From Oryzias latipes (lineage: Eukaryota; Chordata; Actinopteri; Beloniformes; Adrianichthyidae), in contig NC_019871.2 in assembly GCF_002234675.1 (NCBI RefSeq), positions 22,539,466 to 22,603,465 on the forward strand: a stretch of 64,000 bases of DNA. The letters run 5' to 3'. Positions 26,116 through 62,659 of the stretch are shown here, piece by piece (position 1 is the stretch's first letter; every line of letters starts with the position of its first letter). The notes under the pieces are model-generated. The model was not told the DNA's origin and searched no databases. It saw only the letters and a list, made by a program, of their open reading frames with translations. Made by a program: the position numbers and the translations under genes.

Positions 26116-27300
26116 TCATTTGCCGATTCTCTGCACCACCCAGTCTTGTTGGCAGAGGGGGCAACGGTTGTTCTGCTTCACCCAGAGGGACATGCAGCAG
26201 TTGTGGAAGGAGTGGTTGCACTCCCCCCAAACAACTGGAAGATGGAGGCAGACAAACAGGTTAAAAACTGAATGACAAACATGTTCAAAGACAATATATT
26301 GTATGAAACATGTACGTTTTCATTAGTACTCTTATTTTCACAAACACAGCAGGACTTCTGTGACAGATTATAGAGAAATCTTCACATGAAGAAGGGAAGA
26401 ACATTAAAGTTCGTTTGATTGTGTCTCAAACTATTAAAGACCACCTCCAATGAAAATCACGTTTTTGGCGTTCTTATCATGTTCTTGTGATTTTTTTTGT
26501 TTTTTGATGATGGAGGACATGTATAACGAACGATTGCTTTATTCAAATTATTAAAAAACATGAACTTGAACATAAAAGTGGCAATTCATCTCTTTATTAC
26601 AGGCTATTTGGTAAATTTAAAAAAATCACAAAACAGTTTTTTTGTTTTCAGTGTTTATTTTGTTGCCAATGTAAGAAAACTACAAAAACATTAAGAAAGC
26701 TGTCTATGGTTGGATGTTTTTAATGTATTACAATGTGTTTTGTAGTGTATGTGCCAAACTCTGGCATTCTCACTGTTATTGTTCTATGTTCTTTTGTTGT
26801 ATTTTACATAAAATAATAATAATAACTTTTTTCTTTCAATATCGTGAAAGCTGCGCGCCTGAGCTTTTATTGTGGTGGGACGCAGGGTTGATGATAACGC
26901 TCTTTAGCATATCCGGTTAACCGATTGTGCTGTTGATGCAACTTTTAGAGCTCGGGGCGTCTTACCGACACAGTCTTCCTGTTTGTTCTCCGCCTGACAT
27001 CGGAGGCACGCGTCTGTAAAAGTGTCAGAAATAAAGTTAAAGCACCAAGCAGCCTACATCCACCAAACACGTCCGTGTTAGCTAAGCTAGCACGGGTTAG
27101 CCGGGTATGCGTCCCAAGCTAGCTGTCAAACACTTACCCATTACTTGTACCCGACAAATCGCACACGTGTCGCATTCCACGTCCCAGCTCCACATGGCCA
27201 CAGCGTTCCATTTCTTCAGGGAAAACATCTTGTCACTCCCCGTCTTGGATCCCGAAGAGGTGTGAGAAAGCACCAAACCCGGCTCGTCCCCGTCGTCCAT
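26116..27300 (-). CDS. rnf7: rnf7 (RBX2/SAG): RING-H2 subunit of cullin-RING ubiquitin ligases (3 exons, 109 aa)
   Basis: RING protein that recruits the E2 enzyme to cullin-RING ligases, classically CUL5, and supports cullin neddylation in cytosol and nucleus. Exons: 27138-27300 (54 codons plus 1 base), 26966-27013 (48 bp) and 26116-26234 (ends TGA). Donors are GTAAGT and GTAAGA; acceptors are TTTTACAG and CTTCCAG, and phases fit. The protein runs from a variable acidic/Ser-rich start through the invariant KKWNAVAMWSWDVECDTCAI segment, which includes the cullin-binding strand, to the zinc ligands CAICR, CLRCQ, GECNHSFHNCC and CPLCQQDW, ending QRIGK. The total is 109 residues against about 113 in human, the difference being near the N terminus. 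The start at 27300 matches the family start; an upstream in-frame GTG is not plausible here. The gene lies 3 kb upstream of grk7 on the same strand and is divergent from the TMEM255-family gene. Confidence 0.96.
26435..26640. repeat. Repeat Z, copy 3 (in the rnf7 final intron)
   Basis: 'aaagaccacctccaatgaaa', 'ttggcgttcttatcatgttc' and 'gatgatggaggacatgtata'. Confidence 0.55.
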
Positions 27301-29336
27301 CTCTGCAGCTCCCACGTTAGCTTAGCTAAACAAGCTGGATGCTTGTTCTCACAGCGACGGCAGAGGGCGCTGTTTCTCTATTTTTAGTAAAAAGAAGAAA
27401 CCATCTTGAAGTTTGCACCTGTTTTATAGTGTATGCAATTTTTTTAAAATATGCTTCAAGACAATTTATTGTATTTTAGGAAATTATATAAAAACATCTA
27501 ACATGCTTTATATTTCAATAAAAAATGTAATGTCTTAATTTTAAAAACTAATTTTGTCTTGAAACTGTAATCTGTAGCATATAAACTACTCATTATTAAG
27601 GAATGCTCCACTGAAGATATGGACAAAGAAAAATCTAAAATGTAATCAGTCAGGAAAGGTTTCATTAGCTATTTTATTAAATGACATTTTAACACACCAG
27701 CTTATGTAAAAAATATACATCATTTGTTATGTAAACATGCTTCATATAAAGATGAACATCTAATTTGTATGTTTATATAAAAAACAAGCCATTAATATAA
27801 TTAACTACAGTGTAGTATTATAATTTAGGAAAAAACACAATATAAAGTTTTCTCTTTAATGCTGCTGTCTAACAACACCTTAATATTTATTACCTATTTA
27901 ACATAAATTATAGTATACAAGACAATAAAAAAATAAAAATAAATGCTACCTCATTTCATCAGATGTATTTAAACACAACCAAACAAATTTCCAGCTATAC
28001 ACAGAAATTCTTTTATACAGATATCAAATTTACTATCATAAAATACTTTTTTTTTCTAGAATGACATCAATGCTTTGCTTTTGTCATTTTTGTTAAAGGA
28101 GTCCATTTCTCAGGATGGACGGTCAACAGTAAGTTCAGAGGAGCGTTGCTTCCTTCAAAGCCTTCCATTTCGAAGCTGCTTTGTCCTTAAACGTGTTTCT
28201 GTTTAGAGATCCACAAAGGAAACTGTCAGTCTTCATCAGATGAAACAGAAACAGGCACAGAACATCATGGCGACGCCTCTGGAGTCTGAAACGAACTCTG
28301 ATTCTTTAGGACAAGCTTCTGAAAGTTTAATTTGGCTGGCGGCTCCTATCTTTTCACAGCAGCTGGATCCTCAAGTGTGTTGTGAGTTCACAGACCATCT
28401 GTTGCATCACAAAGCAGCACTCTTAACTGGAAAAGTGTCTTAATGAAAGAGGAGCCAAAGTGTTTGCTGAGAAATCGTTTAGGTCAGGAAGTCCAAACAG
28501 AACATCAGCATCCACAGAGAGAGACAATGTTTTCATGAGTAATATGCAGTGTTTTATCCTTTGGACAAATATGTGTTCAGTTTTTTTGGAATAAATGACT
28601 CACTTTTACCCGTAAATCAATTTTGTTTCCCACATTCTTAAGGGTTCCTTTTAATTTTTCTGTCAGACTTTAGTCTGAGTTAACTTTGTTGCGATTCTTT
28701 TGCCATGTCTACATTTTGCATCTCTTGATGAGTCTCGTCGAGAAACAGGAAAGAGAATCCACCTCAGGATCAAATCATTTAAAGTCCCACTCATCTTTTG
28801 ATCTTTTTTCAAATCATTCCCAGTGACGCTTTTTAAAGCAAAAAAACGTGTCGTTTTCCAGAACATAGTACAGTTTTGAGCTAGATATCAGCTCAGACTA
28901 GGAAAACAAAGACATACATGGATCTAGTCATCTACAAGTGGATGCAACAGACTGGAGTGGACCAGGGAGCTACATCATAAATACAATCTTCTTTAAAAAT
29001 GACATTTAAAAGGGCTTTAAATGTCATCTGGTTAAGAGTCCAACTGCTTTTCCCGATTGTCCGTTTTGCACTTTAGTGCCACAGAAACATAACTGCCCAA
29101 TTTTTTGTGTCCCTCTGTAGAAAAAAGAAAAGAAAAGAGGGAAGTCTGGTGTTTCCATCATTCCTTGAATGCAGCAGAGGCAGGATCACTTAACGCTGCC
29201 CTGCAACACTCAGTGGTTGTAGTCAGCACTCACACAGATTCCCAGCATTGAACCCTCATCAGAGCTGTGGTTCAGGAGACGGACGCTGCCTGAGGGAGAG
29301 GTGTGGCTCGTCTTCATTTCATCCACTGCTTCTGTC
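27301..29336. other. Divergent intergenic region between rnf7 and the TMEM255-family gene
   Basis: The first 60 bases upstream of rnf7 are comparatively CpG-rich; the rest is strongly AT-rich. A shortened repeat W copy lies at 28778-28910. No TATA box or other promoter element is convincing. Confidence 0.5.
28778..28910. repeat. Repeat W, copy 3 (shortened)
   Basis: 'aaagtcccactcatcttttg', 'aacgtgtcgttttccag' and 'agttttgagctagatatcagc'. Confidence 0.55.
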
Positions 29337-29403
29337 ATGACTGCAAGGATTCAAGCAGCGGCTGGAAAGTTACAAACTTCTGTGTTTCTCAGCAAAACAA
29401 CAG
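29337..29403 (+). CDS. Candidate first coding exon of the TMEM255-family gene
   Basis: ATG followed by 22 codons (MTARIQAAAGKLQTSVFLSK...) and a good donor, G|GTAAGC, in phase 1. The first certain exon at 32271 begins with two bases that complete the codon, reading ...TT-E-AMLRVRKALW. Mammalian TMEM255 proteins also have a hydrophilic N-terminal segment of this size before TM1. Nothing else supports it: the peptide shows no recognised similarity and no promoter motif is obvious, so this may be a chance match or a leader exon. Confidence 0.4.
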
Positions 29404-32270
29404 GTAAGCTGTCAGCTGAAAGAGGCTTCTGAAAGAAAGATTTACCCAGAAGGCATTTCTATTTCATCCATTCATGACGATGAAGGCTCAGCTGAAAATT
29501 GTGAGAATTCGTTCAGTAATATTTATGACACAATGACTTAATTTTAAACATTTGCTCAAACAATACTTTAATATTTTTAGGACTTTTTAACAACAAGAAT
29601 GCACATTTGCAAAGAATGAGTGGTAATATCTTTGACAAGATCTGAGTTAAGTAAGGAAATGTGTTTAAATTGATTTTTTTTAAATTGCTTTTCAGCAAAA
29701 ATAAGAATTTGCATGTGATGCAAACATAAACGCTAACAAAAATATTCTCAGTAACATGGCATTTCAGATGCACATTTTCTGCAAATATTTCATGCAAAAT
29801 TCAAAAGTAATATTGTTGTGTTGAGGTGAGAACTGCAGGTGATCACTAACCAGAGTCACGCATGAATCCAATAATGAACTGAAATAGCTTTTGTGGAGTC
29901 GATTACATGTTTTCACATTCTGGTGTAACAAAGTTATGCAGCAAAAAAGGCTGGAAGAAAACCAACCCCTGAGGAATGTAAAACTTAAAATGTCAATATG
30001 AAGGTTGCAAACCTCTTTCTTCCTTTTTTATTAAACTAATTCACACTTTAGCTGCATATCTGGATTACCATTTTTTCCACCAGTCTGAAAAATCCTTCTT
30101 CAATTGAAAAGTCTGGAGCAGAAAGGACCAAATTGAAAAAAATACGAAAACAACAATACTCTTATTGAAAAATCACTACAAAAGAAACAAAATTACCTGT
30201 CCATGCAGAAAGTCATCTTTAATTAACATTACATACTATAATAAAAGATCAACATCTAAAAAGAAGAAGTATTCCATTTTGAAGAAGCCTTCAAAAATGG
30301 AAAAACAGCTGTTTGATAGAATTACTTCAAATTGGCTATACAGCCCAAATAGAAGTATTGTTTTGTGAGTTATAAGCAGATGGTTTGTATTCTTTAAGAT
30401 TTTATTGACTTAATTGTTGTTTATTTTTAATAACAGTGACAATAAACTAGTGTAATAAGTGGAAATGACTCTTTTTTAAACAAAATTTGAATATCATCTT
30501 AAAGCAAGTTGGCCCTTTTAAAATCTAAAACAAGCGTTTACTCTTATGACACAAATCTGTTTTTTTCTTTCCAAAGTAATGATAACAAATGCATTTTTAC
30601 CATTATTGAACTTGAAAATAACACCTTTAAAATTGAACCAAAAATTCCAGTACGATTTTATTTATTTTTTTGTCCTAAATCATGTTTTTCTATTGTTAGG
30701 AGTATGAAGCAAAAATTTGATTTTGACTCATTTTAATAATAATTTCTAAATTCCAACTCTTAATGACACAAAACATTCTCCAGCGTGCTAATTTTGAGAA
30801 AAGCTTGGAAAAGTTTAGAGCAAAGAGAAGTTAAAACAACTAAAAACCTAGTAAAATGGATGTTTAAAAACAAGGTTTGAAATAGTTTGCAGTGCATTTG
30901 TCAGACTGTCTTTTATGCACTTGAGAAAAGGGGGGAATCAACAACCTGTGTTTATTTTCACACTGAGCTACGTGGAGTTAACTGTCCACAATGACAAATA
31001 AATGTCTTGCACTATGAAACTTAAACTCAGGTTACGTGTTTAAACATAATATCCTTGATGTGAAACTCCAGCTGTCAGATCTAGAACCGGCAGAGTCCGG
31101 TTAGGAGGACTGACTGGATCCAGAGTTGTACCCTGTAAATTCTATACACTGAAAGTAACACCATCCCCCTTATCCCATAGGGTCTCCATGGGTAATAACA
31201 GCATCCAGAATGATGGAATTTGGGAATATCTAACAGTGTTTCCTCTGTGGAACATCCTTGTAAGCAATTGAACATTTTAAATGTGTAAATCCTGAGCCTT
31301 GCTGCTCAGAAACTCTCATTTGTAAACCAAATGTTGGTGACAAATATGTTTTATCATATCACAATCAGTTATCTAGTCTGAACATACTTACAAAACAGAA
31401 CAGAAGTGCAATCAGATGAAAAGAAATTGAAAATGAAAACCATTAAAAGTTGGAGGCTGTCAGGTTTTTCACCGAACAGAGAAGCAGGTGAGGAGACCAA
31501 GTCTGAGAGGGGACGCTTCATCCAAAGATTCAAAGATTCTGTTTGATGAGCTGCATTCTGTCAAGGGTCATTGTTTTTGGAAATAGTGGTCTGTGAACGC
31601 AGCTCATTAACGTTTTATATGGGAAAGATGAAAGCTTGGTGGGTGTTTTTTTGTGTTGCTTGGTTTCTTTCCAACTTCGGACACATGAAGCAGCAAATTC
31701 ATCAAGGATGAGAGGAGACAGAATCACCGTCATGCTGGATGCTTCTTCTCATAGAATTTTCTTCTTTTTTTAAAGGTTTTGCACAGTTTCTTTCGGGACC
31801 TTAAATTGAAATGTTCTCAGAACATCTTGTACAGAATGAAGCAAAGCCTTTTGTTGTCCCCCTGTTCTATGTTTTTAACTTCATCTTTATCGGCAGGCAG
31901 TTCTTGCAAGAACTCCATAGATCTTCAGTGCTGAGGGAGTAAAGATGTGTGGGACTCATCCGGTGCATTTAGCCATTTTTTCCCCCCAGAAACATCTGTA
32001 TTGAAGCGTTGCCTTTTGTCATGGCTTTTCAAAGTTTAGAGAGATAGATGCAAAATATTTCTGTATTCATTTGGAATATTAAATTAGAGTGTTTTTCTGA
32101 GAAAACTGAGGCTAAACATCTTTAATCCAATAAAGCAAAATGGAGATGGAGATGAAATTCAATTGTGTGGTTTGTTTGGCTTCTCTTAAGAGCCCCGCAG
32201 ACAGATGTTTGATGTTTTTCCCTCATCCTCCTCCTGAGAATTTGACTGAAAGGTTTGTTCCTTCTGACAG

Positions 32271-35200
32271 AGGCGATGCTGAGGGTCAGGAAGGCCCTCT
32301 GGCTGGTACTGGGCATGCTCAGTCTGTCCCTGCTGCTGGTGGTGCTGGGGATCTACACAACGACCATCACAGAGAGCGTGGTTGTGACCGGCTACACTTC
32401 TGGAGTCATTGTGAGTCGTTTTTGTGTTCTCATGTCACTGATGTGTTCGTTTTTGTACGTCAGTGAGATGAGACGAGGTCTCGTGTGACTGCAGACAACC
32501 CTGAACATGCCTGGTTTGTGGCTCCCAGCGGGAAGTACTCAAACATTCCCAGCATGTGGTGTTCATTATGGAATTAAAGCGGCAATCCATGCTGATGTTA
32601 CAGCCATAAAATGCTCTCATTGTAGCCCTGCAGGTGTTAGCTTGGAAGAGTGTAACAGGAGTGATGGACAGTTATACAGTAGACATTTGTTGGACTTCCA
32701 ACCGTTTTTAACCTGAAGGAAAATATTGGATTTTTTGGGAAACTGTGATAGTTTTGCCTCAAAAATAGGAATTTGCATATAATTCAAAGTGTTTATCATT
32801 GCTTACTAGAAAAAATGATTTTACTTTGTTTATAAATACAGCAAAATCTCCCGATAAAGCTGGTAGGCACTCCCTTTACTCTCCCCTTCTCTCCAGCCAC
32901 CCTTGTCAGAGCTACACATGACAAATAAAAAAAATAAATGGCGGCTTTTCTGTTGGTTTATCTCCTTAGCCACCATTGCATTTTTTTGTTGCCTGAGGGT
33001 AACGAACAGGTCGATGTGATTTACAAAAAAATCTGCAAAAGTACATTTTTGGCTTTCCTTGGCAACACAGTTTTTGTTTTGTTTCATTCAGCTTGAGCGA
33101 TTGATTCATGTAATACATTTTCACAATTTTACAGTTACAAATGTGGGAGCAATAAAGGAACGCCACTGTAACCCTTGTGCTATCCTAGGCACTTTAACAT
33201 TGGGAGTTGGGTCATCTAGACCCACTAGACAGTGCTCTGAACCTTTTTTCTTCAATGATTTGTGATCTTCACTGGTGTCCATGGATTACATGAAATCTTT
33301 CCACCTTTATCCACCTTTGTCATGGTAGGGAGAACACATCAATGTGAGGGTGGTGTCATCTAAGATAGCACAAGGGCTAAGAGCTCGCAAGTGGGTCAAA
33401 ATTGACAAACCTTAAAATGAACTGTCTTCCCAGTGATGCTCTAGATATAATCTAAAGTAAAACTGAAATTACACTTTTAAAGATTAATTGTCCTTTAAAA
33501 TAATACATGTCTGCCAAAACTCTTGCTGAGCTGTTGTTAAATACATTTGTACTACGTTAGAAGTAAAAAAAAAACTTTTTTGTTAATTTTTTTAAATTAA
33601 AAATAAATAGATAAAAGAGAAGTACAAAAACAAAGTTCCAGTTTCCCTAAATCTGGCAAGTTTTTTTTCTTGAAAACATTCACTTATTTTTTCTGGAAAT
33701 GTTATAAAAAGTGAGAAAACAAAAGTACAACATTTGCTTAAAACAAGATCCCTTCAAGATCAAAAGAACAAGATTTATTGTCTTAAACATTCATAACATC
33801 TTAATTAAAAGTAACTAGTCTTATTTTAAGTGTAAAAACCAGAAGGCAGACACAAATACTTTGGTGAAATTTGATGTTTTTGGAGTCTATAAAATATCCA
33901 GTGTGTTAAGATCACAAAGGAAGTATTGATATTGCCTTTCCATTCATCATTGGGACGTGTTTGTTCCTGTAATATCCAACTAATCATAAAGTGTATGATG
34001 GTTTTAATTAAAAAGCAGTTTGTTTGTGGATTACATAACTCTCCCTTTATGATATTTCAAACTCTGCAGCTGACCCTTGGCTGTTTTCTGGGAATTCTGG
34101 GACTCCTCCTGGACGAGAACCGCCGGCAGCTGGTACAGTGTGAACGCACAGGCCTCCTCTCCACAAACACACCACACTGAGGCACACTTGCTGCATTTTT
34201 TTCATTGCATTGTGGTGTTGGTTTATGCATTAGCCCCAACTGCCCTTACGGGTGGATAAGGGCTGTCTGTGGGCTAAAAATGGGCACGCCTGTATTGCAT
34301 GCAGTTGGGCCATACAAAGTTTTAAGATCATAGACCACTCAGCGAGCCTGTAGAGAGAAAATGTCTATGCAAAAAATTTTTGAGGGCATGCCACGGGCAA
34401 CAGGTCATAGTGAATACTTATACAATACGTAAGGGAAGTAGGTGAGACGCAGGCGTGTTGCACAGACCTTTCCTGTTTTCAATCCTTCCGAACACTGCAC
34501 ATTGCACAAGGAGCCTTATAGGACTGTTCAAGTGATAAGTGCGTGCTCCTTGCTTGCTGCCTAACAGTTAGTAGTGTGGCGTAAGGACATCGACGGCACC
34601 ACCTGTGCGTCATAAGTGCGTGCAACTTCCATTACCTTAGAAAACCTTCACGATACACTTACCACACGCACAAAAATGGTACATTCCATTTTCATTATAT
34701 CCCTTGAGGATGCCGTATGAGCCTCAAGGGAAGTGCAACATCTCCCCTTGAGATGCGGCTCCTCCTCTCCGTAACCCTCCATTGGTCCGGACAACTCAAA
34801 AACCCAGAGAATCTATCCGGGTCAACCCAACTTTATGGGTGCATGCGCCTCAAGCCTCAGATGTACAGAAGGGATGCTGTTTGTGCAAGATTTACAACGT
34901 TTAAAAGCAGCTTAGCAAGAAACATTTTCATGAATTCATTGGGGTTATTTACATTTGTGAGTTCTTGTGCATGGTTTCTTTATGTTCTGAGATGAAGCTC
35001 AACATGGGAAAATAAAAATATGTCCCCTTTTGACCTGTATTTGAGCATAACAGAACATAATTTTGAAGTTTTTATACTCTGCTGCTGCCTAAAGTGTTTT
35101 TTGAATAATCTGTAAGGCCTTTCATGGTTTACCCGACAGAGATTCTTGCTTTCCGCCTCCGTTCGTTCTTCTTAGGAGCTTACTACTGAAAATAATTGAT

Positions 35201-38200
35201 GCCTAACTGCACTCATCATGATCCTATTTGTTAATCTCTTTTATTCATCTATTAAATAAATTAAAAAAAGGCAGCCTCATGTTCCAGGACTGTGCCAAGC
35301 TTTTCTCCTTCTTCCAGCTCCTCCAGCAAACATCTTCTTGATTAAATAAACTTTTGGGGTGAAAAAGAGGCTGTAGAGGTGTTATTGAGTAGAACTGCAT
35401 GCATCAGGCCTTTCATGACATCCTTTTCCGGTACTCAGATACAGTTGGACATGTTGATTGTGCCCTGATTATGTAAGAGCAGGTGGGGGCTTCTGTGTTT
35501 CATCAAATAAAGTGAAGTAAAGTATTTGCTTTTGACATCCTTGAAGAGACGTCCGTCCACTCTAATGCATGAGTGGATGGGGCTTAGAAAAATCCTGGGT
35601 TTTCTATGTAGCATTCTAATACTTTCTGTGTTTGATAAGTTTGATGGTAAAGTGCAAAGAAGGAGCTCAAGGGAAATATAATAGCCTTCATCGTTCTTCA
35701 GTTGGATGGGAACTTTTCAGGTTGTACATCATCATCAGCCAAAAAAATCCATCTAAGCCTCAATTTGAAATCTCACGGTATTTGATGTTTATCAGAAAAC
35801 AAACAACTGAAGCATTTTAAGAGATATTTTATAAGTGAAATTTGGAACATGTTTAAATTCTTGCAACATGACAGTGAGTTTGTGTGATCTGCAGGAGGAG
35901 AAACTCAGTAAACGTTTCCAGAGACTTTATAAAAGACTTTTTGTAATGTTATACTGAAGTTGCTGCCAGATGAGGTTCAACCTGATGTTTGTTTCTCAGA
36001 TCAGTAATCATTTGAAACCTAGAAAACTGTTGCAAACGGATCACAGACAGTCTGGCAAAAGGCAGCGTGTTGGTTTGATGCTGCAGCGGTGAACTGCTGA
36101 TAGTGGAGTCGAACCAGGTCGAGCGGAAAAACAAACAAGATGGAGTTTACAGTGGCAGAAAACCAGAACTGATGCAGTTTATGTTCCTCCTGCTGGTCTG
36201 GAATACTGTGAATGTGTGCAGCAAAGGATAGAAAAACAGAATGATATGTTGATCCACTCCTCAGTGTTTCAGCAGTCCTTTAATGTGCAGTGCTGCACCA
36301 GGCACTTGATTACACTGAAGAAACACATTTAGTGTTTTGTGGAATTTACTTCCACTTTGTTTTTTATGGCTCATCACCTCAACACCAACATTTTTTACAG
36401 TCATTTCCCTGATAAAAGCTCAATATAGGGACTACTAGTGGATAAACTCAGTAATGTTCCTCACTCTGCAAAAACATTTTATTGCACTTAATTTAATACA
36501 AACCTAAATGTTTTCTGTTTTCATTGAGCTTTAAGACAATACATACCTTGTTGAGTCATTTGGTCTTGAAAACATCATATTTGAACTTAATCTCTAAAAA
36601 AGTAATTTTTTTACATTGTTTTACATGCTTTACATTGTATTTTTAAGCACAAGTTTATTTTTTAGGGTCTTTTTTAAGAAGCAGACTTATCAGATTTAGA
36701 TTAACTTGGACATTTTTTGACTCATAGCAAAAACAGGAAAGAGTAAAAAGAAAATTCATAGACTTACGTATAATTTTTAGAACAATTTTATGTTAAAAAC
36801 TGTGATTCTAGTCCCATACACTGAGATAATTACTGTATTTTCGAAAAATCATACTGTTGAGATTCATATAATATAATATATCTTGAGTAAATATACCTAC
36901 TTTCACAATATAAAACTTTTTTTTAATTCTATTTAGCAATATAAGCTTATTTTATGGTACTTTCAAGATTTCTATTTGTGTAAAAAAGGCAGGACATCAC
37001 AACGTATTTTAAGAAATCTTACAGATACAAATTCTACTAGCTTTCTTGAGAAGTTTTTTTCCACTTGTAACAATTGAAAACACATCTTGTATTCTTTAGT
37101 TTTTCACTTTTTTTGAGAAGGATGTTGTAAAATTATATTTTTTTTAGTTTATTATAGTGCCACTGTTAAGTCTCGAATATCTTGAGTCATTTGACCCCAA
37201 AAATACATCTTATCAAATGACTCAAGATATTCGAGACTTGTTGTCCTAATACAACTTCTTAAATCTTAATGATAAGTTGCTATTAAGTTCATTTTGTCTC
37301 ATATCGACTAGGAAAAAGACACAAACAATCGGGGAAGTTTATTTTTTTGCAGCCCATCTTATGTGACTTTATAAAACAGTTTTCTATACGACTTTGCATT
37401 GACTACTTGTAGTTTAACTTACACTAATAGGATTTTCTGTGCTGTTGGTGTTTATCCTTTTTAGCTTTACCTTGTCTTTCTTGTTTTTTTCTCTCCGCCT
37501 CTTGCAGCTGACAGCCGCCATTGTTTTCCTGAGTTTAGGGATCATCACTTCCTTCTTCTGCCTCCTGATAGATGGCGTCAGCATCGTCCTGAACATGGTG
37601 GGTCACCCAATCTGTTTACCCATAGATGCATGCATTTGATGATGAAACTGCAGGAACAGCAGGTCTTTGAGCATTCATAAATAAACCATGGTGCCTGTGA
37701 CTGTCATCCAGCTGGACTGTGTTCCCTCCTCACTGCGAGCTTACATTACAGCGTTGGCAGATTTGACAGTGTGTACAATCGCGTCCATGAAAGGATATGT
37801 ACCCAGAATACATTTGGCAGCTTTGTTTTGCCACCCAGTTGCGAAACAGATCCATTAAGTACAATGTTTCATGATTTCTGTGAGTGCAGATATTCTGGAT
37901 TATTGCAGATTTTTACTGGAGGGAGGATTCCTCAGAGAAAACCAACAAAGTTTTCTAAACTTTTTGTTTTACCTTTCATGTAAAGCTACGTTCACACCGC
38001 CCTCAGCATAGTGCGTTTAAGTAACCACTTTCAATGAAAAGTCTACCCTTCTTCAGTGTTCAAAACTCTTGTCATTCACATGTAGCTAAACACACTTTTA
38101 AGTCAGTTTCCAGACTCTACATACAAAACATTTCATACACTGTATCGGCATTGAGCTGTGAAAGAAAAAGCATGGAGCGAGATTCACCAGTAAGTGGCAG

Positions 38201-41200
38201 GCAGTTTTGTTCATTTTTTAATGTTTTACTTTGCAGAGTTCTTAAAGTTTCTGCCAGACATGTTCACATTGATGAATCAGAAGTTGGAGTAGAAATTAAT
38301 CCTTAAATTAAAAAATATTGAGGCACACAAGTATTAAACAAAACCAGAGGTGGAAATATTCCTCTCAAAATTTTCTGGATGAGGTGCAGCCATTTGGTTT
38401 GCAGGGAGGGAAACTCTGAATGTGGTTTAAACATCAATCACTGGGGAATTTCCCACCGTGCAGGGGTGTCCAGGGGGATTTGTGTTTAAAATCAGGTCAA
38501 TTTGGTTGCAAGTTCAAGTTTAAATCAAACGTGTACCCTCCCAACAGTAACTGGGATAGGCTCCAGCAACCCCAAGACCCTGAAAGGGATACAGTGAGTT
38601 TTGAAGAAAGATGGATGGATGAATGGATTATTGTGATTTATTAGTATTGGTGCACGTTTTTGCAACAAAAATATCTGAAGGGAAGCTAGTCTGAGGGGAG
38701 ACCAACAATTATGCAGGCATAGCCCCCCCCCCCCCCTTTTGTTTTTAGAAGTTAAAAAAAAAGGCTGGAAATAATTAATTTTTTTTTTTCAAATTTACTG
38801 TCGCATGGCCACAGGAAAAGTATTTAGAAACTCAGAGGATGACTTTAAAGTTTTTTTCTTCCAAAACTTTCACTATTATTCAATTTTTTGGTTGACAGAA
38901 CAACGTCTGTTTTTACCTTAATACATAGTTTTACAAATCTCTCTACCTGAGGTAAAAGATGTACATTTTGCTTTATAAGAGGCTTTAAAAAGGTCACATT
39001 TACTTATACATTAATAAAAAACCATGGCTGAATCGATTTTTTGAATGTCTTCAGTGTCTTTTTTAATGCGACTTAAAGACGTTCCTGTTAATGTTGCACC
39101 TGCTACCATGAAGGAGGCCCATCCTTTTCCTCACATAGCAGGAGCTGCAGGACTGTTCTGTGCTAAAATGTCTCACAGGCCTCAAAGGTCGACATGGGTC
39201 TCCACAGTGAAAACTTTTACTGCCACTGATGGCGGTCAGGTCACTTTTTGTTTTTCTGCTCTTCACAGGACATGCGTCCACTGAACGCTGGGAGGTGCCA
39301 GTATTACAGCAGCGGCAGGAGCTACATCTATGAGAATTTCTTTGCCACAGTAAAAAAAAACAACACTTTTTTCAGAATAAATGATCAAATATTGCACATA
39401 TATATATATTTATTTTTTTTATATTTTGTTTCCTGTCTGAGGCTGAACGTTCCTGTTTCAGGTGTCATGTCAGAATCTGAAGGAGTCCTGCTCCCTAACA
39501 GTACGGAGTAGAACCTGTTACTGCTGCGACCTCTACGACTGTGCCAAGTGAGAGGAGACACACGTCAAAAACACACACATTTGAAAGAAATGCATCACAT
39601 CCTATGTTCACTCTTTGTGTTTCAGGCACTTTTGAATCTTAAAGAATAAGACAAATCACTATTTCATCACTTCCTGCTGTCTGTTGTGCTTTGCAGCGGA
39701 GGTTACCTCAGCAACTACTATGAGTTTGTTGGTGTTGAGAGCTGCGAGGATGTCTTCACGCTGTACGTGTTCATTTGGGTCCTCGCTGGTCTAAACCTGA
39801 TGGCCTTCTTCACGGGAATACTGACCACGGCAGTGCTGGGCAGCGTCAAGTCTGTGGTAAGATCTTGCAGAAACCATGTCTTCATACGTGTTCTTCACCT
39901 GGTAACATGTGAATCATCTGAGCTCATCACAAATCAAATCTACGGAAAGCAAAAAGTGACAGAAAAAATCAGAAAAATGGTTAAATAACAAATTAAACAT
40001 CAATGGATTTAATTTAGATACTGATAGCAGCAGTGAATTTTAGTTTCCTAATGCAACTTTCTTTAATACACTCGAATAAAGTAAATAGAATTAGACATAT
40101 TTGTTTTCTTAATTACATTTTAATAAATTATTTAAATGTTTGTTTTAACCAATTTTTATTGGTTTCTTAAACTTGTAATAAACCTTTGCTCAAATAAAAA
40201 AGCAAATGCTTGCAGCAAAACTTAGCAACTTCAAACCACTATTGTTCACTGCGAGGTTGTTTTGTATTTGTACTTGAATATTAGAATATTTTTGTAGTTT
40301 CTTCTGTATCATGAATGGGCCCAGAATCTCTTATGGGGCTCAAGAAAAATCCACTAGCAAAACAGAAAATAGTCAGGGATCTCTAAAAGAAGTTTTGAAA
40401 CTATTATGGGATGGCCACAGGACCTTTGGCATGGTAGCCTTTTTCTGAAATTGAGCAATTTTCACATTTTTTAAAACTTTTGACCCATCATCTTGACTAT
40501 TTCTTAAACCCCACATAGAGCCTTCTACAAATTTAAACTGCTCCCAAGGATTTTGGTCCATCGTCTCCTAACTCCTTGGAATCGTTGGGAAGCTACTTTG
40601 GAAAAAAATTGGTAACGTCTGTAGAATTTGTACGGCGTTTGTGTGACGAGATCGCAAAAGAGGTGTTCCCCTGTTGCTCGTATATTTTTTACTGGAATAT
40701 TTGTCATGATTTGAACTTGTCTTGTTTTTGGTCCTTGTTCTGTCTTGTTTCTGTTTCCTGTTTTATTTTGAAAGTCTCCTGTCTTGTCTGTTTTCTTGAG
40801 TTTTACTTCCTTTGGTCCCCATCAGCCCTGATCGTGTCCACCTGTGTCTTGTCTGCCCTGTCTGTATATAAGTCTGGTCTCTGCCTTCCTCCAGTGTTGG
40901 TCCATTAGTTATTCCTGTCCTGGTTGTCCTTGTCATGCCATGTTCCTCGTTTCTTGTTCCACGCCACAGTGAGTTTTGTTTAGTTTTGTCATCCTGCTCT
41001 GCAGCGCCTTTTGTTTGTTCATTAAACCCTCTAGACTCTGATCCTCATGCCTCCACCTCTGCGTCTGGGTCCAACCGGCTCTCGAGCCACCCTGCACCAT
41101 GACAATATTGTGAAAATTGAATACCTAAATCATTGGCTCAAGCTGAATGAAACGATATAACATAAATACGAACATATTAGGAATGTGGGCGTGGTTACCA

Positions 41201-44200: not shown

Positions 44201-47136
44201 GATTTGTGATCTTCACTGGTGTCCATGGATTACATGAAATCTTTCCACCTTTATTCACCTTTATCATGGTAGGGAGAACACGTCAATGTAAGGGTGGGGT
44301 CATTTAAGATAGCACAAGGGTTAAGTGCGTTTACGTAGACTTTTCATTCAAAGTGGCAGCTTGATTGCCGAGAGCGATGTAGACATAACTTTGGATGCAG
44401 CCACTCCTCTCAACGACCCTCCATGGACCCAGAAAACCCAAAAACCCACAGCACTCACTTGTAGCAACCATTTATACTGGGGCATGTGACTAAAGCCTAG
44501 GAAGTTTCTAGAGAAAAGAACACAGAAAAAGAAAACATTTACTTAAGGAAGGGATTTCTACTGAAGAATGCTATTAAACAGACTACCACAACTGTTTTTA
44601 AAAAACGACTTCTTTGTGTTTTCTCTTCATTTTTTGGTTTTCTTTCAGGTACAAAATATAAATATACAAAATATAAATCCCTTAGTAAATTGTTTGGTAA
44701 AATGACTAATATAAAACTCAGTGGAACTTTGGAAGACTCAGAAAATCCTTTGGGCTTTTTAGAAGATTACAACAGAGGTCTTTGGTAGAAAAGCACACAA
44801 AAATGTGTCTTTAGGTCTAGTGTTAACACACAGGTACAGTATGAACTTTTTCTGCATCGAGTTTGTCTTTTTCTTCAAAAATATTGCAGCTTTGTCTGTG
44901 AGCAGACCACACAGTCTTTCATCCTTCACTTTAGGGTTTCTTCTTCCTTCAGGAAGTAAATTTATCTGCTCTGTTTTATGGAAAACGCTCACAGGTCCTT
45001 CTGTTATCTTTCCTTTAGTGGTGTTGTCAGAGTTCCCCCCATGTTCTTTGATTTAATATAACCAAACACAGTTCCTTATCCTTCCCTCCCCCACATTCCA
45101 TGACATATACATTAAGGAAATTGCAGTTAAAGGAAAGTCTTTGATGGCGAGGTCTGATTTGGTTTTTTGTTCCTTATCAGGTCTACTGTTAAGATAAAAA
45201 TGACCTCACAAGAACAAAAACACACATTTGACAATCATTCCAGGAACTGAGCTCAACACATTTCCATCAAGCCTGAATCCTGTGTCAGTTTAAAAACTGT
45301 CCGTGTGGTGTAGCGGTTAGCTCACAGTAAAAAGGTCTGGTTTCAAATCCAGGATGGGTCCTTTCTATGTGGAGTTTTGCACGTTCTCCTTGTGCATGTT
45401 TGGGTTTTCTCCAAGCACTCCGGTTTGCTTCCACAGTCAAAGAACATGCTTCAAAGGTTAATTGGTGATTCTAAATTGTTTCATTAGGTGTGAATGTGAG
45501 TGTAGGTGTACCGCCCTTCAGCAGCATCCCTGTGACCCCGTACAAAGAACAAGCGGGTTTGAAAATGGCTGGATGGGCATTTAGCTATGAAAGGAGCCCA
45601 TATAATGACCCCTTCCGGCACCGTGCTTTAGAGTGATATTGTTCCAGACATCATGCAGTTATGTTAAAAACTCCAGATCAGCACATTAACAAGCACTGGC
45701 TATAGAACAGGAGGTAACAAATGACAGAACTTAAATGGAACGCAAAAAGATTTACTGATTTGTAGGCAGCAGTGCGCCACTCCATGTGAGTGACAGGTGA
45801 GGGGGCGGAGCCCTCAAGGAAAGTCACAGCCAACCTCTGCAGAAGACTAAAAACAGAAAACAAAACAAGAAAGTAACTGACCAACAGACTGTGAGAGCAG
45901 ATTGTTTAGAAGGAAAGCTGCAAACCCACAAAACCTTTCTTTTAACGTCCCTCATAGAAACTTGTGGATTCTTCTTTCAGCGCTAAACAAAATTCTAGCA
46001 GACCTGCACTCTGTGAGAATATGCTTTTCTAGCATTTTCATTATTTCTGATGTTAAGATTAATTTGCTGCAACATCCATCATTAAAAGGTTAGATATCTA
46101 AAATGTTTTCCTCCCAGAAATAATCATTTTGGAAAGAACCGTTATTTTAGACAGATAAGAAGCAGAAATTAGCTCTTGGGAGTCATTTATACTGAATTTT
46201 CAGTCGATTTGTCAAATGTTTGTGTTATTTGGAAGAATTTACTTGTTTCATTTGTCTTTTTTTAAGTTGCAAGAAAAGTGAATAATGTATCTTTGTAAAT
46301 GCATCCCAAATTACAACCCAATCAGAAAACTTTGATATTATTAAAAGGATATTTTTTTTATTTTTTTATTAAAACCACTCAAACTAAATCGTTTTTTACT
46401 AAAGTTTTGAGGGTGTGATTCGTTTTAGGAAGTTTAAAAAAATAAAATGAACAACCTAACATGTTTTGTGTTTTAACAGGAAAATTAAAATTAATAATAA
46501 AATGGAAAATTTAAAAAGTAAAAATAAATGTGATTTTTTTAATGATCTTTTGTGATGGCCTGAATTCTGCTCTAACAACTCCCCACTATCTTCTTATGTT
46601 GTATTGATGGTTTAAATTGTTTAATCATAAATCTAATTTATTCAAACAAAAAGAGCACATAAGTCTCTTTCTGCACGCAAACTGAAGTTTCAGACATTTC
46701 TAAAAAACTAAATCAAATTTTTACATCCCTCTTTATTTGAACATTTGAAAAATTAAAGCACCACAGCTGCTTTTTTTTCTTGTAATTTGTTTTTTTAATG
46801 ATCAAACAGAAACATATATAGATAAAGTCGCCAAACTTTAAATGATGTTCTGGTGTTTGATGATTACTGTACACTGAAACATCAGTAGATGTTGGAATTG
46901 GAATTTTATTTGATGTTAACAACTGACATACATTTGGTCAAATACAACATTTTTATGCTTTTTTATTCAATTATGCTGTGTTGAAAAAATTCACCATTCT
47001 TGTTGAATATTTTGACTTTTTTGTGTTTCAGAGGAGCTACCCTGTGACAGAATCCACGGAGAGCAGGAATTCTTCTCCCACAGCTCCTCTGTTGATGGAT
47101 GCCAACACCCCCCCCAATTACCCTGCAGTAGACTAA
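32271..47136 (+). CDS. TMEM255-family four-pass membrane protein (tmem255b-like; possible third paralogue)
   Basis: Function is unknown for the family. Certain exons: 32271-32410, 34070-34132, 37508-37597, 39269-39349, 39462-39547, 39697-39856 and 47032-47136 (TAA). All have GT...AG borders and compatible phases. Segments in order: TM1 (LVLGMLSLSLLLVVLGIY), TM2 (LTLGCFLGILGLLL) followed by DENRRQ, TM3 (AAIVFLSLGIITSFFCLLI), a Cys-rich loop with GRCQYYSSG, SCQNLKESC and TCYCCDLYDC, a YYEFVGVESCEDVF stretch, TM4 (WVLAGLNLMAFFTGILTTAV) and a short tail with a PPNY motif. NRRQ, GRCQ.YSSG and CYCCDLY.C closely match recalled human TMEM255B. The tail (34 residues) is much shorter than in mammalian TMEM255A/B. 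Translation could begin at the ATG in the first listed exon (239 aa) or in an upstream exon at 29337 (263 aa). The long last intron contains several nested repeats. Confidence 0.88.
33168..33380 (-). mobile_element. TTAA MITE, copy 4 (inverted)
   Basis: GTAACCCTTGTGCTATCCTAG ... GATAGCACAAGGGCTAA. Both TTAA flanks have drifted by one base. It lies in an intron of the TMEM255-family gene. Confidence 0.88.
34200..34900. repeat. Unclassified moderately GC-rich intronic stretch
   Basis: Less AT-rich than its surroundings, with scattered short inverted words ('cccttacgggtggataaggg', 'cccttgagg...cctcaaggg'). It looks like repeat debris; no boundaries or coding frame. Confidence 0.3.
35000..37500. 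other. Intronic, no recognisable element
   Basis: AT-rich intron of the TMEM255-family gene. A near-perfect inverted pair around 37170-37240 ('tctcgaatatcttgagtca' / 'tgactcaagatattcgaga') could form a hairpin. Confidence 0.45.
37983..38310. repeat. Repeat V ('GTTCACACCG' family), copy 1, partial
   Basis: 'gctacgttcacaccgccctc', 'agtaaccactttcaatgaaa' and 'agtctac', matching 48270-48340. Confidence 0.5.
38480..38625 (+). repeat. tRNA-like SINE repeat, copy 3 (3' tail only)
   Basis: 'aactgggataggctccagca', 'gaccctgaaagggatac' and 'gatggatggatgaatgga', the usual tail of the fish repeat also seen at 14941 and 45300. Confidence 0.6.
38723..38736. repeat. Poly-C tract
   Basis: A 14-base C run. 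Confidence 0.8.
40330..41480. repeat. Unclassified repeat Y, copy 3 (split by a solo LTR)
   Basis: Same block order as 17680-18240 ('ccttctacaaatttaaac', 'gggaagctactttgg', 'aacatattaggaatgtggg', 'ccatggagataaaacca'). It ends 'ctcacggctttaatttg', like copy 1. Confidence 0.65.
40702..41104 (+). mobile_element. Solo LTR with 5-bp TSD ATATT
   Basis: 403 bp, starts TGTCATG and ends CATGACA, flanked by ATATT (40697-40701 and 41105-41109). A TATA-like 'tctgtatataagtctgg' and a polyadenylation word ATTAAA lie in the expected order. No internal region remains. A Gypsy-type origin is a guess. Confidence 0.85.
43203..44324 (-). mobile_element. TTAA MITE, copy 5 (inverted), interrupted by a hAT-like element
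   Basis: GTAACCCTTGTGCTATCC at the left and GATAGCACAAGGGTTAA at the right; the interior is identical in layout to the 33168 copy apart from the 901-bp insert. Confidence 0.9.
43257..44157. mobile_element. Nonautonomous hAT-like element, copy 2, with 8-bp TSD ATCTATAC
   Basis: Starts CAGTGTTTTTCAACC and ends GGTTGAAAAACCCTG, flanked by ATCTATAC (43249-43256 and 44158-44165). A fuller version of the 7932 copy: it has an extra middle block around 43490-43740. A 28-base poly-C tract (43381-43408) lies beside 'gtctgtattgatcgacag', as the poly-G tract does in copy 1. No transposase. Confidence 0.9.
45300..45575 (+). repeat. tRNA-like SINE repeat, copy 4 (most complete)
   Basis: 'gtgtggtgtagcggttagct' resembles a tRNA A box and 'ggtttcaaatcc' a B box. 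Then 'tatgtggagttttgcacgtt', 'tccgg.ttgcttccacagtc', 'aaggttaattggtgattct', 'gtgtgaatgtgagtgt' and a GGATGG-like tail. It is a repeat, not a functional tRNA. Confidence 0.75.
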
Positions 47137-55300: not shown

Positions 55301-55301
55301 A

Positions 55302-55329
55302 CCCCCCCCCCCCCCCCCCCCCCCCCCCC
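55302..55329. repeat. Poly-C tract
   Basis: A 28-base C run. Confidence 0.9.
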
Positions 55330-55399
55330 AGGTTAAAGAAAATAAAGAAAAGAATCAGGTTTGGCCTTATGTGTTGCAACTCTTCTTCTTTTCATAGAG

Positions 55400-55540
55400 T
55401 TGATCAGGTTGTCGATTGGCCCATGGTGGCGGTGGGATTATGGTATGGGCAGGCGTATGTAAAAAACAACAACACACAGGTGAGTTTTATTGGTGGCATT
55501 TTGAACACACAGAGATACCAGGCTTTCATCGGTTACCAGC
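55400..55540 (+). pseudogene. Degenerate Tc1-like transposase scrap
   Basis: Frames combine to GGGGIMVWAGV then TQVSFIGGILNTQRYQ, the central strand pair of Tc1 transposases (GGGGVMVWG ... FI.G.LNAQRY). A frameshift separates the halves and no inverted repeats were found. Confidence 0.5.
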
Positions 55541-55639
55541 TGATCCAACAAGCTGAGGAGGACCCGTACCCATGTGAATACTCCTACTTCAGAGGCATCG
55601 TCTGAATCTCTCACTGAAAGTGCCTAAAGCAAGTGGTGA

Positions 55640-58010: not shown

Positions 58011-58014
58011 GGTG

Positions 58015-59775: not shown

Positions 59776-59781
<6 letters not shown>

Positions 59782-59862
<81 letters not shown>

Positions 59863-59908: not shown

Positions 59909-60190
59909 TGGAGGGACGTTTATGGAGCCAAGACAGAAAGAAACTCCAAGGTTCAAGGGGGGAGAGCAGGATGTTAGAAACCAAGGATTTTCACAGCTGT
60001 GGATGTCGAACAGAGTGAATAAAAACAGGTAATAGCAGCCTATTCACACACCATCAGACGACGCTTCCACCGTGCCCATGCTGAACCGCGGAGCGGACAC
60101 AAAAAAAGAGATCGGGAGCCGCCTCTGCCTGAGAGACGAGGAGCGACCGAGCCCTGCAGAGGCGTTCCTCTTCATGTCTGAAGGTTTCCG

Positions 60191-60221
60191 TCACGGAGAC
60201 GCCTTTTCCGATGGGTCGGGG
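60191..60221 (-). CDS. rasa2: rasa2 terminal coding exon (31 bp)
   Basis: Acceptor AG at 60222-60223, then one base completing the split codon and ten codons including TGA, giving YGSLPDPSEKASP as the protein end. Human RASA2, as I recall it, ends YGSKENPIVGKAS, so length and last residues agree. Another AG two bases upstream (60224-60225) would give an unrelated 17-residue tail. The 3' UTR extends to the left; its end was not located. Confidence 0.65.
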
Positions 60222-62659
60222 CTCTTCAAGGACAATAAAAATCCGCTGCATGGCCGTTTAAGCCACACCCACTCCACAGGTTAAGAGGTTTTCCCCACAA
60301 TAGGGTTGTCACTGCAACAAAGAAAGCAAATGCAGCTTTTTTAAAATAAAACAAAAAGAACAGCTGTTTTTCTACTAAATTGATTAAAATAAACCAAATA
60401 CAGTTTTAATTTGAAAGAAGTTACACATTTCTACTTTATTACGACTTGCTAAAGTAAAAAAAAAAATGGACCATTGGATCAGCAGAACAAAGAACTCTGC
60501 AGCAGATGATGGAACCCACTCCAGCAGGGAGATGGTCTCCAGAGCAGCTTTTTTTGTTCTGGATGGTTTAAAATGTTTTGATATCTTGTGCAATCGGAGC
60601 CTGAAGCTTCACCTGAGCACCTGCCATGACTCTGCACTTATGATTACAGTAAAAGGGATTTGCAGGAGCAGAACAAGATCATGATCTGAGGACTGAAGGC
60701 GTTTCTGCTTCTATGTTTTTAATCACTGGAACAAAGGTTAGTTAGAGGATTCAGACCCAATCATCTTTATACGTAGGTGACTATTTAAAGATTTCTGAAA
60801 CCCGCATTATTCTGTTTTTTACAGTACACACCGGGACGAATATTCGCCAGGCGTTATTCGCCAGCGTTTTTCGTCACGTTTTTTGTGTTCACACCCAGGC
60901 GATTTTCGCTGACGATGAGTGGAGTGAACATGCAATTTCATTCCCTGACATTAGATGGCGCTTAATGTAAAACAGAAATACTCCTGTACACAAGGTGGCG
61001 CTGCGCAACTTTACGCTTCTTAAAGTCGCTTTTCACTCAGAAGAAGAGAGCAAGTATTTACGCGCTTGTCAGAATCAAACAAAGAAAACATGAATATTTC
61101 AAGCACCAGTTGCTCCAACTGGTGCTTGATTCGGGGATATTTTAGAATGTCCGTCATTATTGCTTCGCGGCAGTGTAGACGCTACTTGGCGTATATCTTC
61201 TTCGCTGGTATGTGTGCTCAGCAAGGCAGTTTTGTGTTTGAGCGCCCCCAAGTTGTGTTTTACTGTAACTTCAGAAGCTCCAGACACGTGAGCAAAAGCG
61301 CCGTTCTCATTGGTCGAGTAGATTTCGACGCGACGCGTCGAAAAAAAAAAACGAACCCGAGGCGTTTTTTTTTTTCGACGCTTTAACGCCTGGCGTTTTT
61401 TCGCGTCGGTGTGCACACTCTCGTTGGTGCCCTTTGTTTAGTCACGAGGCGTTAAACGTCGGCGAAAATCGCCGGCGAAATTCGTCCCGGTGTGAACAGG
61501 CCTTAAGTCCTGATTTTTCTCTGCCAATTCTCTGACATTATTGGATTACTTTTTAAAAACTATAAATGACAAAGATCACACTGTAATTTAAAAAAAATTT
61601 GTACTAAAATGTATTTGGGTTTCAAAATTTAAAAAAAGAGCAGTTTTAAACTGCAAAGCTTTATATTTTACTGTAAAAAACAGAAATAAATAAACTAAAA
61701 TATACTTATTTTTAACAGAACGTATTCTCTTTTACTTTGTTATGAGCTGTGGCCCACATATACCAGTTTAACCTTATGTCTATTAATGAAAAGGAGCAAT
61801 TACATTGCCAAGAAAATTACTTTTTTTAATGTTCTAATGAATTTATGAATGAATATCTCAAATATGTTTGATATAATGAATCTATGTATTATTATGGGCT
61901 TTATTCCTTTGATTTTGAAATTGCATGTAATAACTTAACAAACCCAAACTTTCATTTCTCCGATATTGCGGATGGTCGTAGACTCACAGGCTGCCGTATT
62001 GTGCGGTGGTGTCGCTGCGGGTGTCGTGCTGCCTCTGCAGCTCCTCCATCACGTTCCGTAGCTGTTTGAGTGTCTGAAAGGTCTCTTTGGGTTCCTGGAT
62101 GGTGAACTTGGAGTACTCCTCTGGCTCTCGCTGGGGGCCCTGGTACACGGCCATGCTGGCACACGCATCTGAGGGGGGGAGACAAGCACCGTAAAGCTGG
62201 CTTCCATCAAGACTTCCCTGCAGTTAGTGATGCTTCACAACACCAGAGGATGTTCAGGAGGATAATGGGGAAGGTTGTTAACTTGAGGTGAACGTTGAGA
62301 GTTTAACAAATGTTTACAGGACTTCTAGCCTTTGTTCTGGTATTTATGGACTGGGAGAAGAAGTGAAAGTGCACACATGGGAACCTAAACCCACAAAGCA
62401 AGGAAAACCACCGCAGAGCTGTACAAAAGTCAGAGAACCGAACAATTAAAAACAGATGCAAGAGTCCTGTATGAGTTTCAGTGTTTTCACATGTTACAGC
62501 CATGGCTACAGGTCATATGTGTTCCATAAAGCGTGTTCTTCAATGTTTTACTGACCCTCCATGTTATGGAGCTTGACATCGTTTGAGGAGAGGAAGGAGA
62601 AAAGTCTCTCTGCCTCGCGGTCGCAGTCGATGTCCAGCTGCAGGTTGGCCAGCATGGTG
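60191..62659 (-). CDS. rasa2: rasa2 (GAP1 family RasGAP): last three coding exons, partial
   Basis: RASA2 stimulates GTP hydrolysis by Ras at the plasma membrane; only its C-terminal tail is here. Exons: 62556-62659 (34 codons, reads TMLANLQLDIDCDREAERLF...KLHNME), 61988-62168 (DACASMAVYQGPQREP...EEYSKFTIQEPKETFQTLKQ...AQYGS) and 60191-60221. Donors G|GTCAGT and CT|GTGAGT and acceptors GTTTCAG and CCCTCAG are clear. The pattern DREAER - ACASMAVYQGP - YSKFTI - TFQTLKQ - YGS matches my recollection of the RASA2/RASA3 C terminus, and the ending matches RASA2 better than RASA3. Position next to rnf7 and grk7 agrees with human RASA2-RNF7-GRK7 linkage. Upstream exons, including the GAP and PH domains, lie beyond the right edge. 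Identification is by recall and synteny, not by search. Confidence 0.8.
60820..61507. mobile_element. CpG-rich palindromic DNA element in the last rasa2 intron
   Basis: The left end 'acaccgggacgaatattcgcc' (60828 on) is inverted at the right end 'cgaaattcgtcccggtgtgaa' (61476 on). Inner inverted copies of GGCGTT/AACGCC words and CGACGCGTCG give a nested palindromic layout. The interior is noncoding in effect: open frames on both strands near 61066-61416 mirror each other. No target duplication identified; superfamily unknown. Confidence 0.6.

What the first reader, a model, noticed from the sequence alone, without database searches (positions are those of the whole stretch)
26116..62659. A TMEM255-family gene between rnf7 and rasa2: possible third 2R paralogue missing from mammals
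Seen: the order grk7(-), rnf7(-), TMEM255-like(+), rasa2(-). Known, from recall: human 3q23 has RASA2-RNF7-GRK7-ATP1B3 without a TMEM255; 13q34 has ATP4B-GRK1-TMEM255B-RASA3; Xq24 has ATP1B4-TMEM255A. These are three sister regions of one paralogon. Inference: this gene is the member belonging to the 3q23 branch, kept in this fish lineage. Its divergence from TMEM255B in TM1-TM2 and its very short tail would fit a separate paralogue.
Basis: partly seen in the sequence, partly recalled or inferred. Interest (0 to 1): 0.75.

Follow-up and report, generated by a model that had tools for sequence, protein, structure and literature searches.

The report
Third TMEM255 gene in a fish
This fish carries a third, apparently intact gene of a small membrane-protein family for which the mammalian literature counts two; it sits where an ancient whole-genome duplication would have left it, so it is most likely an old vertebrate gene that mammals lost.

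Summary
A FAM70/TMEM255 gene with seven exons found (+, 32271-47136; Pfam PF14967, 4.6e-76) lies between rnf7 and rasa2, with grk7 beyond rnf7.

The window's own genome could be searched (734 Mb, 25 contigs). All 14 PF14967 matches fall at three loci:
- C10, beside atp1b4 and lamp2: tmem255a.
- C3, in the order grk1a(+)-tmem255b(+)-rasa3(-), as in human 13q34 as recalled.
- This window on C13: grk7(-)-rnf7(-)-TMEM255(+)-rasa2(-).

So the would-be refutation, relocation of the only tmem255b, fails. The rasa2 C-terminal exon has one other match in the genome, on C3; TMEM255 and RASA converge in both blocks. A second grk7 lies on C17 beside an atp1b gene, so the teleost-duplication twin of this block is probably C17, not C3.

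A five-sequence tree rejects the TMEM255A clade under all five protein models but cannot tell 'outside A and B' from 'inside B'.

Verdict: very likely a 2R ohnologue on the 3q23 branch; a new member of a known family. Not tested: gar, shark and frog orthologues, and expression. Human sequences and gene orders were recalled.

The parts
32271..32410 (+). TMEM255-like exon (TM1; starts in phase 1)
   Evidence: AG acceptor, GT donor
34070..34132 (+). TMEM255-like exon (TM2)
   Evidence: 63 nt as in both paralogues
37508..37597 (+). TMEM255-like exon (TM3)
   Evidence: 90 nt as in both paralogues
39269..39349 (+). TMEM255-like exon (start of the Cys-rich loop)
   Evidence: 81 nt as in C3 tmem255b (66 in C10)
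39462..39547 (+). TMEM255-like exon (loop with CYCC motif)
   Evidence: 86 nt as in C10 (83 in C3); ends in phase 2 as in both
39697..39856 (+). TMEM255-like exon (end of loop and TM4)
   Evidence: (E 5.2e-12); 160 nt as in C3 (163 in C10)
47032..47136 (+). TMEM255-like last exon: 34-aa tail ending PPNYPAVD and stop
   Evidence: frame and acceptor fit, no transcript evidence
17213..23162 (-). grk7 (open pieces 17216-17572, 18989-19309, 21226-21723, 22320-23162 contain its exons)
26119..27321 (-). rnf7 (RING-H2 exon within 26119-26319; N-terminal exon within 27097-27321)
   Evidence: zf-rbx1 7.7e-12
61987..62730 (-). rasa2 C-terminal exons (within 61987-62223 and 62551-62730)
   Evidence: both match, in the same order, the RASA gene on C3

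Best explanation
The gene is a third FAM70/TMEM255 paralogue: the copy left on the GRK7-RASA2 (human 3q23) branch by the two rounds of early vertebrate genome duplication (2R), still intact in this fish and gone from the same place in mammals. Shown here: three loci in one genome; the GRK-TMEM255-RASA set present twice (C3, C13) with TMEM255 and RASA convergent in both; tmem255a beside atp1b4/lamp2; conserved intron phases, loop cysteines and open frame. Inferred: the 2R date, loss in mammals, retention in only one of the two teleost-duplicated copies. Protein mechanism (inferred, lower confidence, about 0.35): a four-pass membrane protein with a disulfide-rich loop that recruits or steadies membrane partners, and a short cytosolic tail whose single PPNY motif could bind WW domains of NEDD4-type ubiquitin ligases (recalled motif role); the loss of the long proline-rich tail suggests it kept the membrane and loop role and shed most tail contacts.
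For: 14 of 14 PF14967 matches fall at C10, C3 or C13. C3 order: grk1(+) 16470867-16477449, tmem255b(+), RASA C-terminus(-) about 16520600-16521000. The C3 GRK scores 236.9 bits to PDB GRK1 against 135.7 to GRK5, and its frame ends CCAS; PMC5795056 (passages) says that of the visual GRKs only GRK1As end in A, S or C. The window GRK is about equally far from GRK1 (102.7) and GRK4/5 (101.7/98.1), as GRK7 should be. The rasa2 C-terminal exon has 2 matches in the genome (3 candidates scored): itself and C3. Second grk7 at C17:5.680 Mb, 49%, 13 kb from an atp1b. C10 flanks: atp1b4, lamp2, nkap. Equal intron phases; invariant loop Cys and four hydrophobic regions. PMC5795056 (passages): gar regions around the visual GRKs and arrestins form a paralogon, with GRK7, GRK1A and GRK1B on different chromosomes. 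Random landing in the 38.8-kb interval in the right orientation is about 2.6e-5. Mechanism leads: TMEM255A co-precipitates with CTDNEP1 and raises its level (PMC11192845, passages); Fam70A binds Wnt5a (PMC7309945, passages).
Against: Site-homogeneous models prefer, not significantly, grouping with C3 tmem255b (AU 0.81-0.85) over the basal position (0.11-0.26); six sites are shared with C3 only, all conservative exchanges. Human sequences in the tree were typed from recall. grk7 is turned round relative to grk1a. No ATP1B match was found near C13 or C3. A RasGAP-domain search gave 21 matches, one at C3:16527240 and none next to the window on C13; exons are short and only 29 candidates were scored, so rasa2 rests on its two C-terminal exons. 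No outgroup or non-teleost orthologue was seen. No expression evidence; first exon not found. The PPNY role is motif reading only.
Confidence: 0.85

Rival explanations
1. A teleost-specific (3R or later) duplicate of tmem255b that moved next to rasa2.
For: Protein is nearer recalled human TMEM255B than A; the best tree under site-homogeneous models joins it to C3 tmem255b; e5 and e7 lengths match C3 (81 and 160 nt), although e6 (86 nt) matches C10.
Against: Neighbours are grk7, rnf7 and rasa2, not grk1 and rasa3; the second grk7 is on C17, so C17 rather than C3 is the likely twin of this block. Chance landing beside the paralogous RASA in the same orientation is about 2.6e-5. It is no closer to C3 (43.9%) than to recalled human B (48.1%). 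Under LG+C20 the preference vanishes and under Dayhoff-6 it reverses.
Confidence: 0.1
2. An older, pre-2R tandem TMEM255 copy that survived only on this block, so that it is a deeper paralogue than A and B.
For: Basal position is not rejected and is best under Dayhoff-6; PMC5795056 argues that GRK1 and GRK7 themselves arose by duplication before tunicates split off.
Against: Needs extra losses; one TMEM255 per block is simpler; e5/e7 lengths match C3 and four sites are shared with both B sequences.
Confidence: 0.04
3. A decaying pseudogene, not an expressed protein.
For: Long branch (0.78), one tail exon fewer than the paralogues, first exon not located, no transcript evidence.
Against: Seven open exons with six canonical introns, all loop cysteines, GC3 0.70, hard to keep by chance over the time implied.
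Confidence: 0.05

Closest known systems
TMEM255B (FAM70B), human 13q34 (recalled); here C3 tmem255b
   Same: FAM70 profile match, intron phases, loop cysteines, place between a GRK and a RASA gene, convergent with RASA, C-terminal PPxY
   Different: 44% (C3) and 48% (recalled human) identity; flanked by rasa2/rnf7/grk7 instead of rasa3/grk1a; tail 34 aa against 125 aa in C3
TMEM255A (FAM70A), human Xq24 (recalled); here C10 tmem255a
   Same: FAM70 profile match, intron phases, loop cysteines, C-terminal PPxY
   Different: 44% (C10) and 41% (recalled human) identity; flanked by atp1b4/lamp2; AU rejects this clade at p<0.01 under four protein models and p<0.05 under the fifth (Dayhoff-6 rejects one of two placements)

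Membership tests
FAM70/TMEM255 (PF14967) | Profile match above the curated cut-off | tested here: met
   256.8 bits against 27, E 4.6e-76, profile 19-236 of 323
FAM70/TMEM255 (PF14967) | Four membrane segments and Cys-rich loop with CYCC motif | tested here: met
   Eight hydropathy peaks over 1.6 falling in four regions; 8 loop cysteines invariant across five sequences
FAM70/TMEM255 (PF14967) | Family intron pattern | tested here: met
   Phases 1,0,0,0,0,2,0 as in C10 and C3 genes, which have one further tail exon
FAM70/TMEM255 (PF14967) | PPxY motif near the C-terminus (common to the three, not known to be defining) | tested here: met
   PPNY at 233 of 240; the long proline-rich tail of the other two is absent
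TMEM255B orthologue | Flanked by GRK1A and RASA3 | tested here: not met
   Flanks are grk7/rnf7 and rasa2; the C3 gene meets this (RASA2 against RASA3 naming by position and recall)
TMEM255B orthologue | Groups inside the TMEM255B clade | tested here: inconclusive
   Inside-B and basal trees all pass the AU test in all six analyses
TMEM255A orthologue | Groups inside the TMEM255A clade | tested here: not met
   AU p below 0.01 in LG, JTT, WAG, LG4X; 0.048 and 0.026 in LG+C20; Dayhoff-6 weaker, 0.118 and 0.02
2R ohnologue (3q23 branch) | Lies in the paralogous block with other duplicated families in matching order | tested here: met
   GRK-TMEM255-RASA on C3 and C13; C10 block has tmem255a-atp1b4-lamp2
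2R ohnologue (3q23 branch) | Orthologue present at the same place in non-teleost vertebrates | not testable with these tools
   Tool descriptions name no other vertebrate genome
2R ohnologue (3q23 branch) | Rooted tree with splits at 2R | not testable with these tools
   No outgroup sequence on hand

The most novel reading that the evidence does not exclude
A third, ancient jawed-vertebrate member of the FAM70/TMEM255 family ('TMEM255C'), created in 2R, lost from the mammalian 3q23 region, and specialised by shedding the proline-rich tail down to one PPxY motif.
Probability: 0.8. Interest if true: 0.42.

Novelty: new member of a known kind. Interest (0 to 1): 0.38.

Why it matters
It would turn a family described as having two members (PMC7309945, passages) into a three-gene vertebrate family, give the GRK/arrestin paralogon another retained gene family, and offer a natural short-tail variant to separate what the membrane/loop part of TMEM255 does (CTDNEP1 and Wnt5a links are reported for TMEM255A) from what the tail does. 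Ohnologues lost in mammals are a known kind of event, so it is a useful case rather than a startling one.

Tried and rejected
Relatives of the three proteins in viral contigs (70 pattern matches, none confirmed) and genome contigs (23, none confirmed): nothing, as expected. Rfam on the window: 0 matches at gathering score. Tail exon relics in the 7.2-kb last intron and downstream to 61.9 kb: no tblastn hit at E<=10, so which paralogous tail exon the last exon corresponds to stays open. First exon: two ORF candidates end in the right phase (29337-29403, 31433-31487), neither supported. Structure prediction was not run: a spliced protein is not a letter-for-letter translation of the window, so I did not send it. 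Papers: 6 searches, of which I saw listings (40 of 108; 20 of 183; 30 of 110; 2 of 2; 15 of 15; 15 of 17) and passages of 11 papers (plus section 7 of PMC5795056). None of the 30 papers listed held TMEM255C, tmem255ba, tmem255bb or TMEM255B-like, and nothing that I saw treats the family's duplication history; only open-licence PMC texts are held, and the unlisted papers were not seen. One lead, Gm364, is mentioned beside FAM70A but is described as an EMP70 protein, so it was dropped.
Full report
The observation. The first-stage reader saw grk7(-), rnf7(-), a TMEM255-like gene(+) and rasa2(-). All four are there on those strands. Stop-to-stop reading frames give the GRK pieces at 17.2-23.2 kb, the RNF7 pieces at 26.1-27.3 kb, the TMEM255 pieces from 32.3 kb and the RASA C-terminal pieces at 62.0-62.7 kb. 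Pfam confirms the RNF7 RING-H2 exon (zf-rbx1, 7.7e-12), the GRK RGS and kinase exons, and the spliced TMEM255-like product (FAM70, 4.6e-76, 256.8 bits against a cut-off of 27). The two RASA C-terminal pieces give no relevant Pfam hit; they are identified by their matches, in the same order, to a RASA gene on C3 and by recall of RASA2/RASA3.

The gene model. The seven exons found, with six GT-AG introns, form one open frame to a stop: 32271-32410, 34070-34132, 37508-37597, 39269-39349, 39462-39547, 39697-39856, 47032-47136. The intron phases are 1,0,0,0,0,2,0, the same as in the two other family members of this genome, which have one tail exon more. GC at third positions is 0.70 against 0.39 GC for the window. 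The eight cysteines of the large loop are invariant across the five sequences compared and the hydropathy peaks fall in four regions. The tail is 34 aa (96 in the C10 gene, 125 in the C3 gene, from exon lengths) and ends PPNYPAVD. An upstream first exon must exist or translation starts at the in-frame Met; two candidates were listed but neither is supported. There is no transcript evidence.

The rest of the family in the same genome. The window's assembly could be searched: 734,051,031 bases in 25 contigs, which fits the medaka Oryzias latipes (recalled, not tested). The window is C13:22539466-22603465. All 14 PF14967 matches at E<=0.001 (22 candidates scored) lie at three places: 5 on C10 near 9.76 Mb, 6 on C3 near 16.48-16.49 Mb and 3 in the window. 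The C10 gene ends EKPPPYSP, is 76% identical over the core to human TMEM255A typed from recall, and is flanked by atp1b4, lamp2 (Lamp2_2nd, 3.8e-20) and nkap, which is the lamp2-atp1b4-tmem255a cluster reported as conserved in the vertebrates examined by PMC11026864 (passages). So C10 is tmem255a. The C3 gene is 58% identical to recalled human TMEM255B and ends EKPPPYAC. So the fish has both canonical genes and the window gene is a third one. A still more diverged fourth copy below the search's threshold is not excluded.

Neighbourhoods. On C3, translated window exons hit a GRK on + at 16470867-16477449, before the TMEM255 gene, and a RASA C-terminus on - near 16520600-16521000, after it. The C3 GRK is nearest to GRK1 (236.9 bits against 135.7 for GRK5) and its frame ends in CCAS; PMC5795056 states that of the visual GRKs only the GRK1As end in Ala, Ser or Cys (passages). 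The window GRK is about equally far from GRK1 and GRK4/5 in the PDB (102.7, 101.7, 98.1 bits), as GRK7 should be. The rasa2 C-terminal exon of the window has one other match in the genome, on C3 (45%, 3 candidates scored). Hence the genome holds GRK-TMEM255-RASA twice: grk1a-tmem255b-rasa3 on C3, as in human 13q34 (recalled), and grk7-rnf7-TMEM255-rasa2 on C13, as in human 3q23 (recalled) plus the extra gene. TMEM255 and RASA converge in both. Points that do not fit neatly: the GRKs differ in orientation, which an inversion or descent from a tandem GRK1/GRK7 pair could explain; no ATP1B match lies near C13 or C3 (17 matches, 27 candidates scored); and a RasGAP-domain search (21 matches, 29 candidates scored) rings at C3:16527240 but not beside the window, so rasa2 rests on its two C-terminal exons. 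On the age of the GRK split two papers differ: PMC5795056 puts it before tunicates (section 7), PMC6170504 at 1R (passages).

Which duplication. Two vertebrate-wide rounds (2R) and a teleost round (3R) could be responsible. Four places match the window's large GRK exon (13 candidates scored): itself, a second grk7 on C17 at 5.680 Mb (49%), and two at 30%, the C3 grk1a and one on C21 that I take for grk1b without a test. The C17 grk7 lies about 13 kb from an ATP1B gene. The 3R twin of the window block is therefore probably C17, which has no PF14967 match, and not C3. Since mammals also have both blocks (cattle list for the GRK7-RASA2 block; otherwise recalled), the C3/C13 split is at least as old as 2R. 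PMC5795056 describes the gar regions around visual GRKs and arrestins as one paralogon, with GRK7, GRK1A and GRK1B on different chromosomes (passages). A stray copy of tmem255b landing at random in the 38.8-kb grk7-rasa2 interval in the right orientation has a chance near 2.6e-5 (simple area argument).

The tree. With three own-genome proteins and two human proteins typed from recall (201 ungapped core columns), placement inside the TMEM255A clade is rejected (AU 0.00065 and 0.00007 under LG+G4; below 0.01 under JTT, WAG and LG4X, 0.048 and 0.026 under LG+C20, but 0.118 and 0.02 under Dayhoff-6). Three placements pass in all six analyses: outside both clades, with C3 tmem255b, and with human TMEM255B. 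The site-homogeneous models lean to C3 tmem255b (AU 0.81-0.85; basal 0.11-0.26), LG+C20 is indifferent, Dayhoff-6 leans to the outside (0.861). Six sites support the C3 grouping, all conservative exchanges; three support grouping with human B; four unite the gene with both B sequences against both A. Exon lengths are mixed: e5 and e7 as in C3, e6 as in C10. Both this gene and C3 tmem255b are on long branches (0.78 and 0.46), so I read the tree as undecided. This is the main weakness; the case rests on position.

Absence from mammals. A cattle QTL table lists GRK7, RNF7, RASA2, U6, a microRNA, ZBTB38, PXYLP1 with no TMEM255 among them (PMC11172856, passages). PMC7309945 says the Fam70 family includes two proteins (passages). 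The human map is from recall. I did not test other mammals, birds, reptiles or amphibians.

Function. TMEM255A co-precipitates with CTDNEP1 and raises its level (PMC11192845, passages); Fam70A binds Wnt5a in mouse oocytes (PMC7309945, passages); TMEM255B is used as a pan-hair-cell marker in chicken (PMC12616014, passages). From the anatomy I propose a four-pass protein whose disulfide-rich loop and membrane part hold partners, with one PPxY motif left for WW-domain ligases. Only the anatomy is shown; the rest is inference.

Verdict. It is a new member of a known family and an example of an old gene apparently lost in mammals. A public annotation of this gene may well already exist under a tmem255b-like name; I could not check that.

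Noticed in passing
window 6635-7456 (+): Tc1-type transposon remnant (HTH_Tnp_Tc3_2 2e-13; DDE_3 4.5e-5, below its cut-off) left of grk7.
   Followed up: partly
window 51055-51360 (+) and 63139-63999 (-): Two reverse-transcriptase fragments (RVT_1 5.6e-7 and 2.1e-7); the second lies beside the rasa2 exons.
   Followed up: partly
window about 37170-37237: Inverted repeat (arms reading TCTCGAATATCTTGAGTCATTTGA and its complement) in a TMEM255-like intron, hairpin-like.
   Followed up: no
window about 55302-55331: Run of about 30 C within an ORF (55276-55602) with no family above its cut-off; the ORF recalls a Tc1 transposase piece by eye only.
   Followed up: no
G000 C17:5665210-5680589: Second grk7 (49% over the large exon) beside an ATP1B gene, the likely 3R twin of the window block, without a TMEM255 match.
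   Followed up: partly
G000 C13 window and C3:16.4 Mb: No ATP1B match near either block, unlike human 3q23 (ATP1B3) and 13q34 (ATP4B) as recalled; ATP1B matches are on C2, C4, C10, C14, C17.
   Followed up: no
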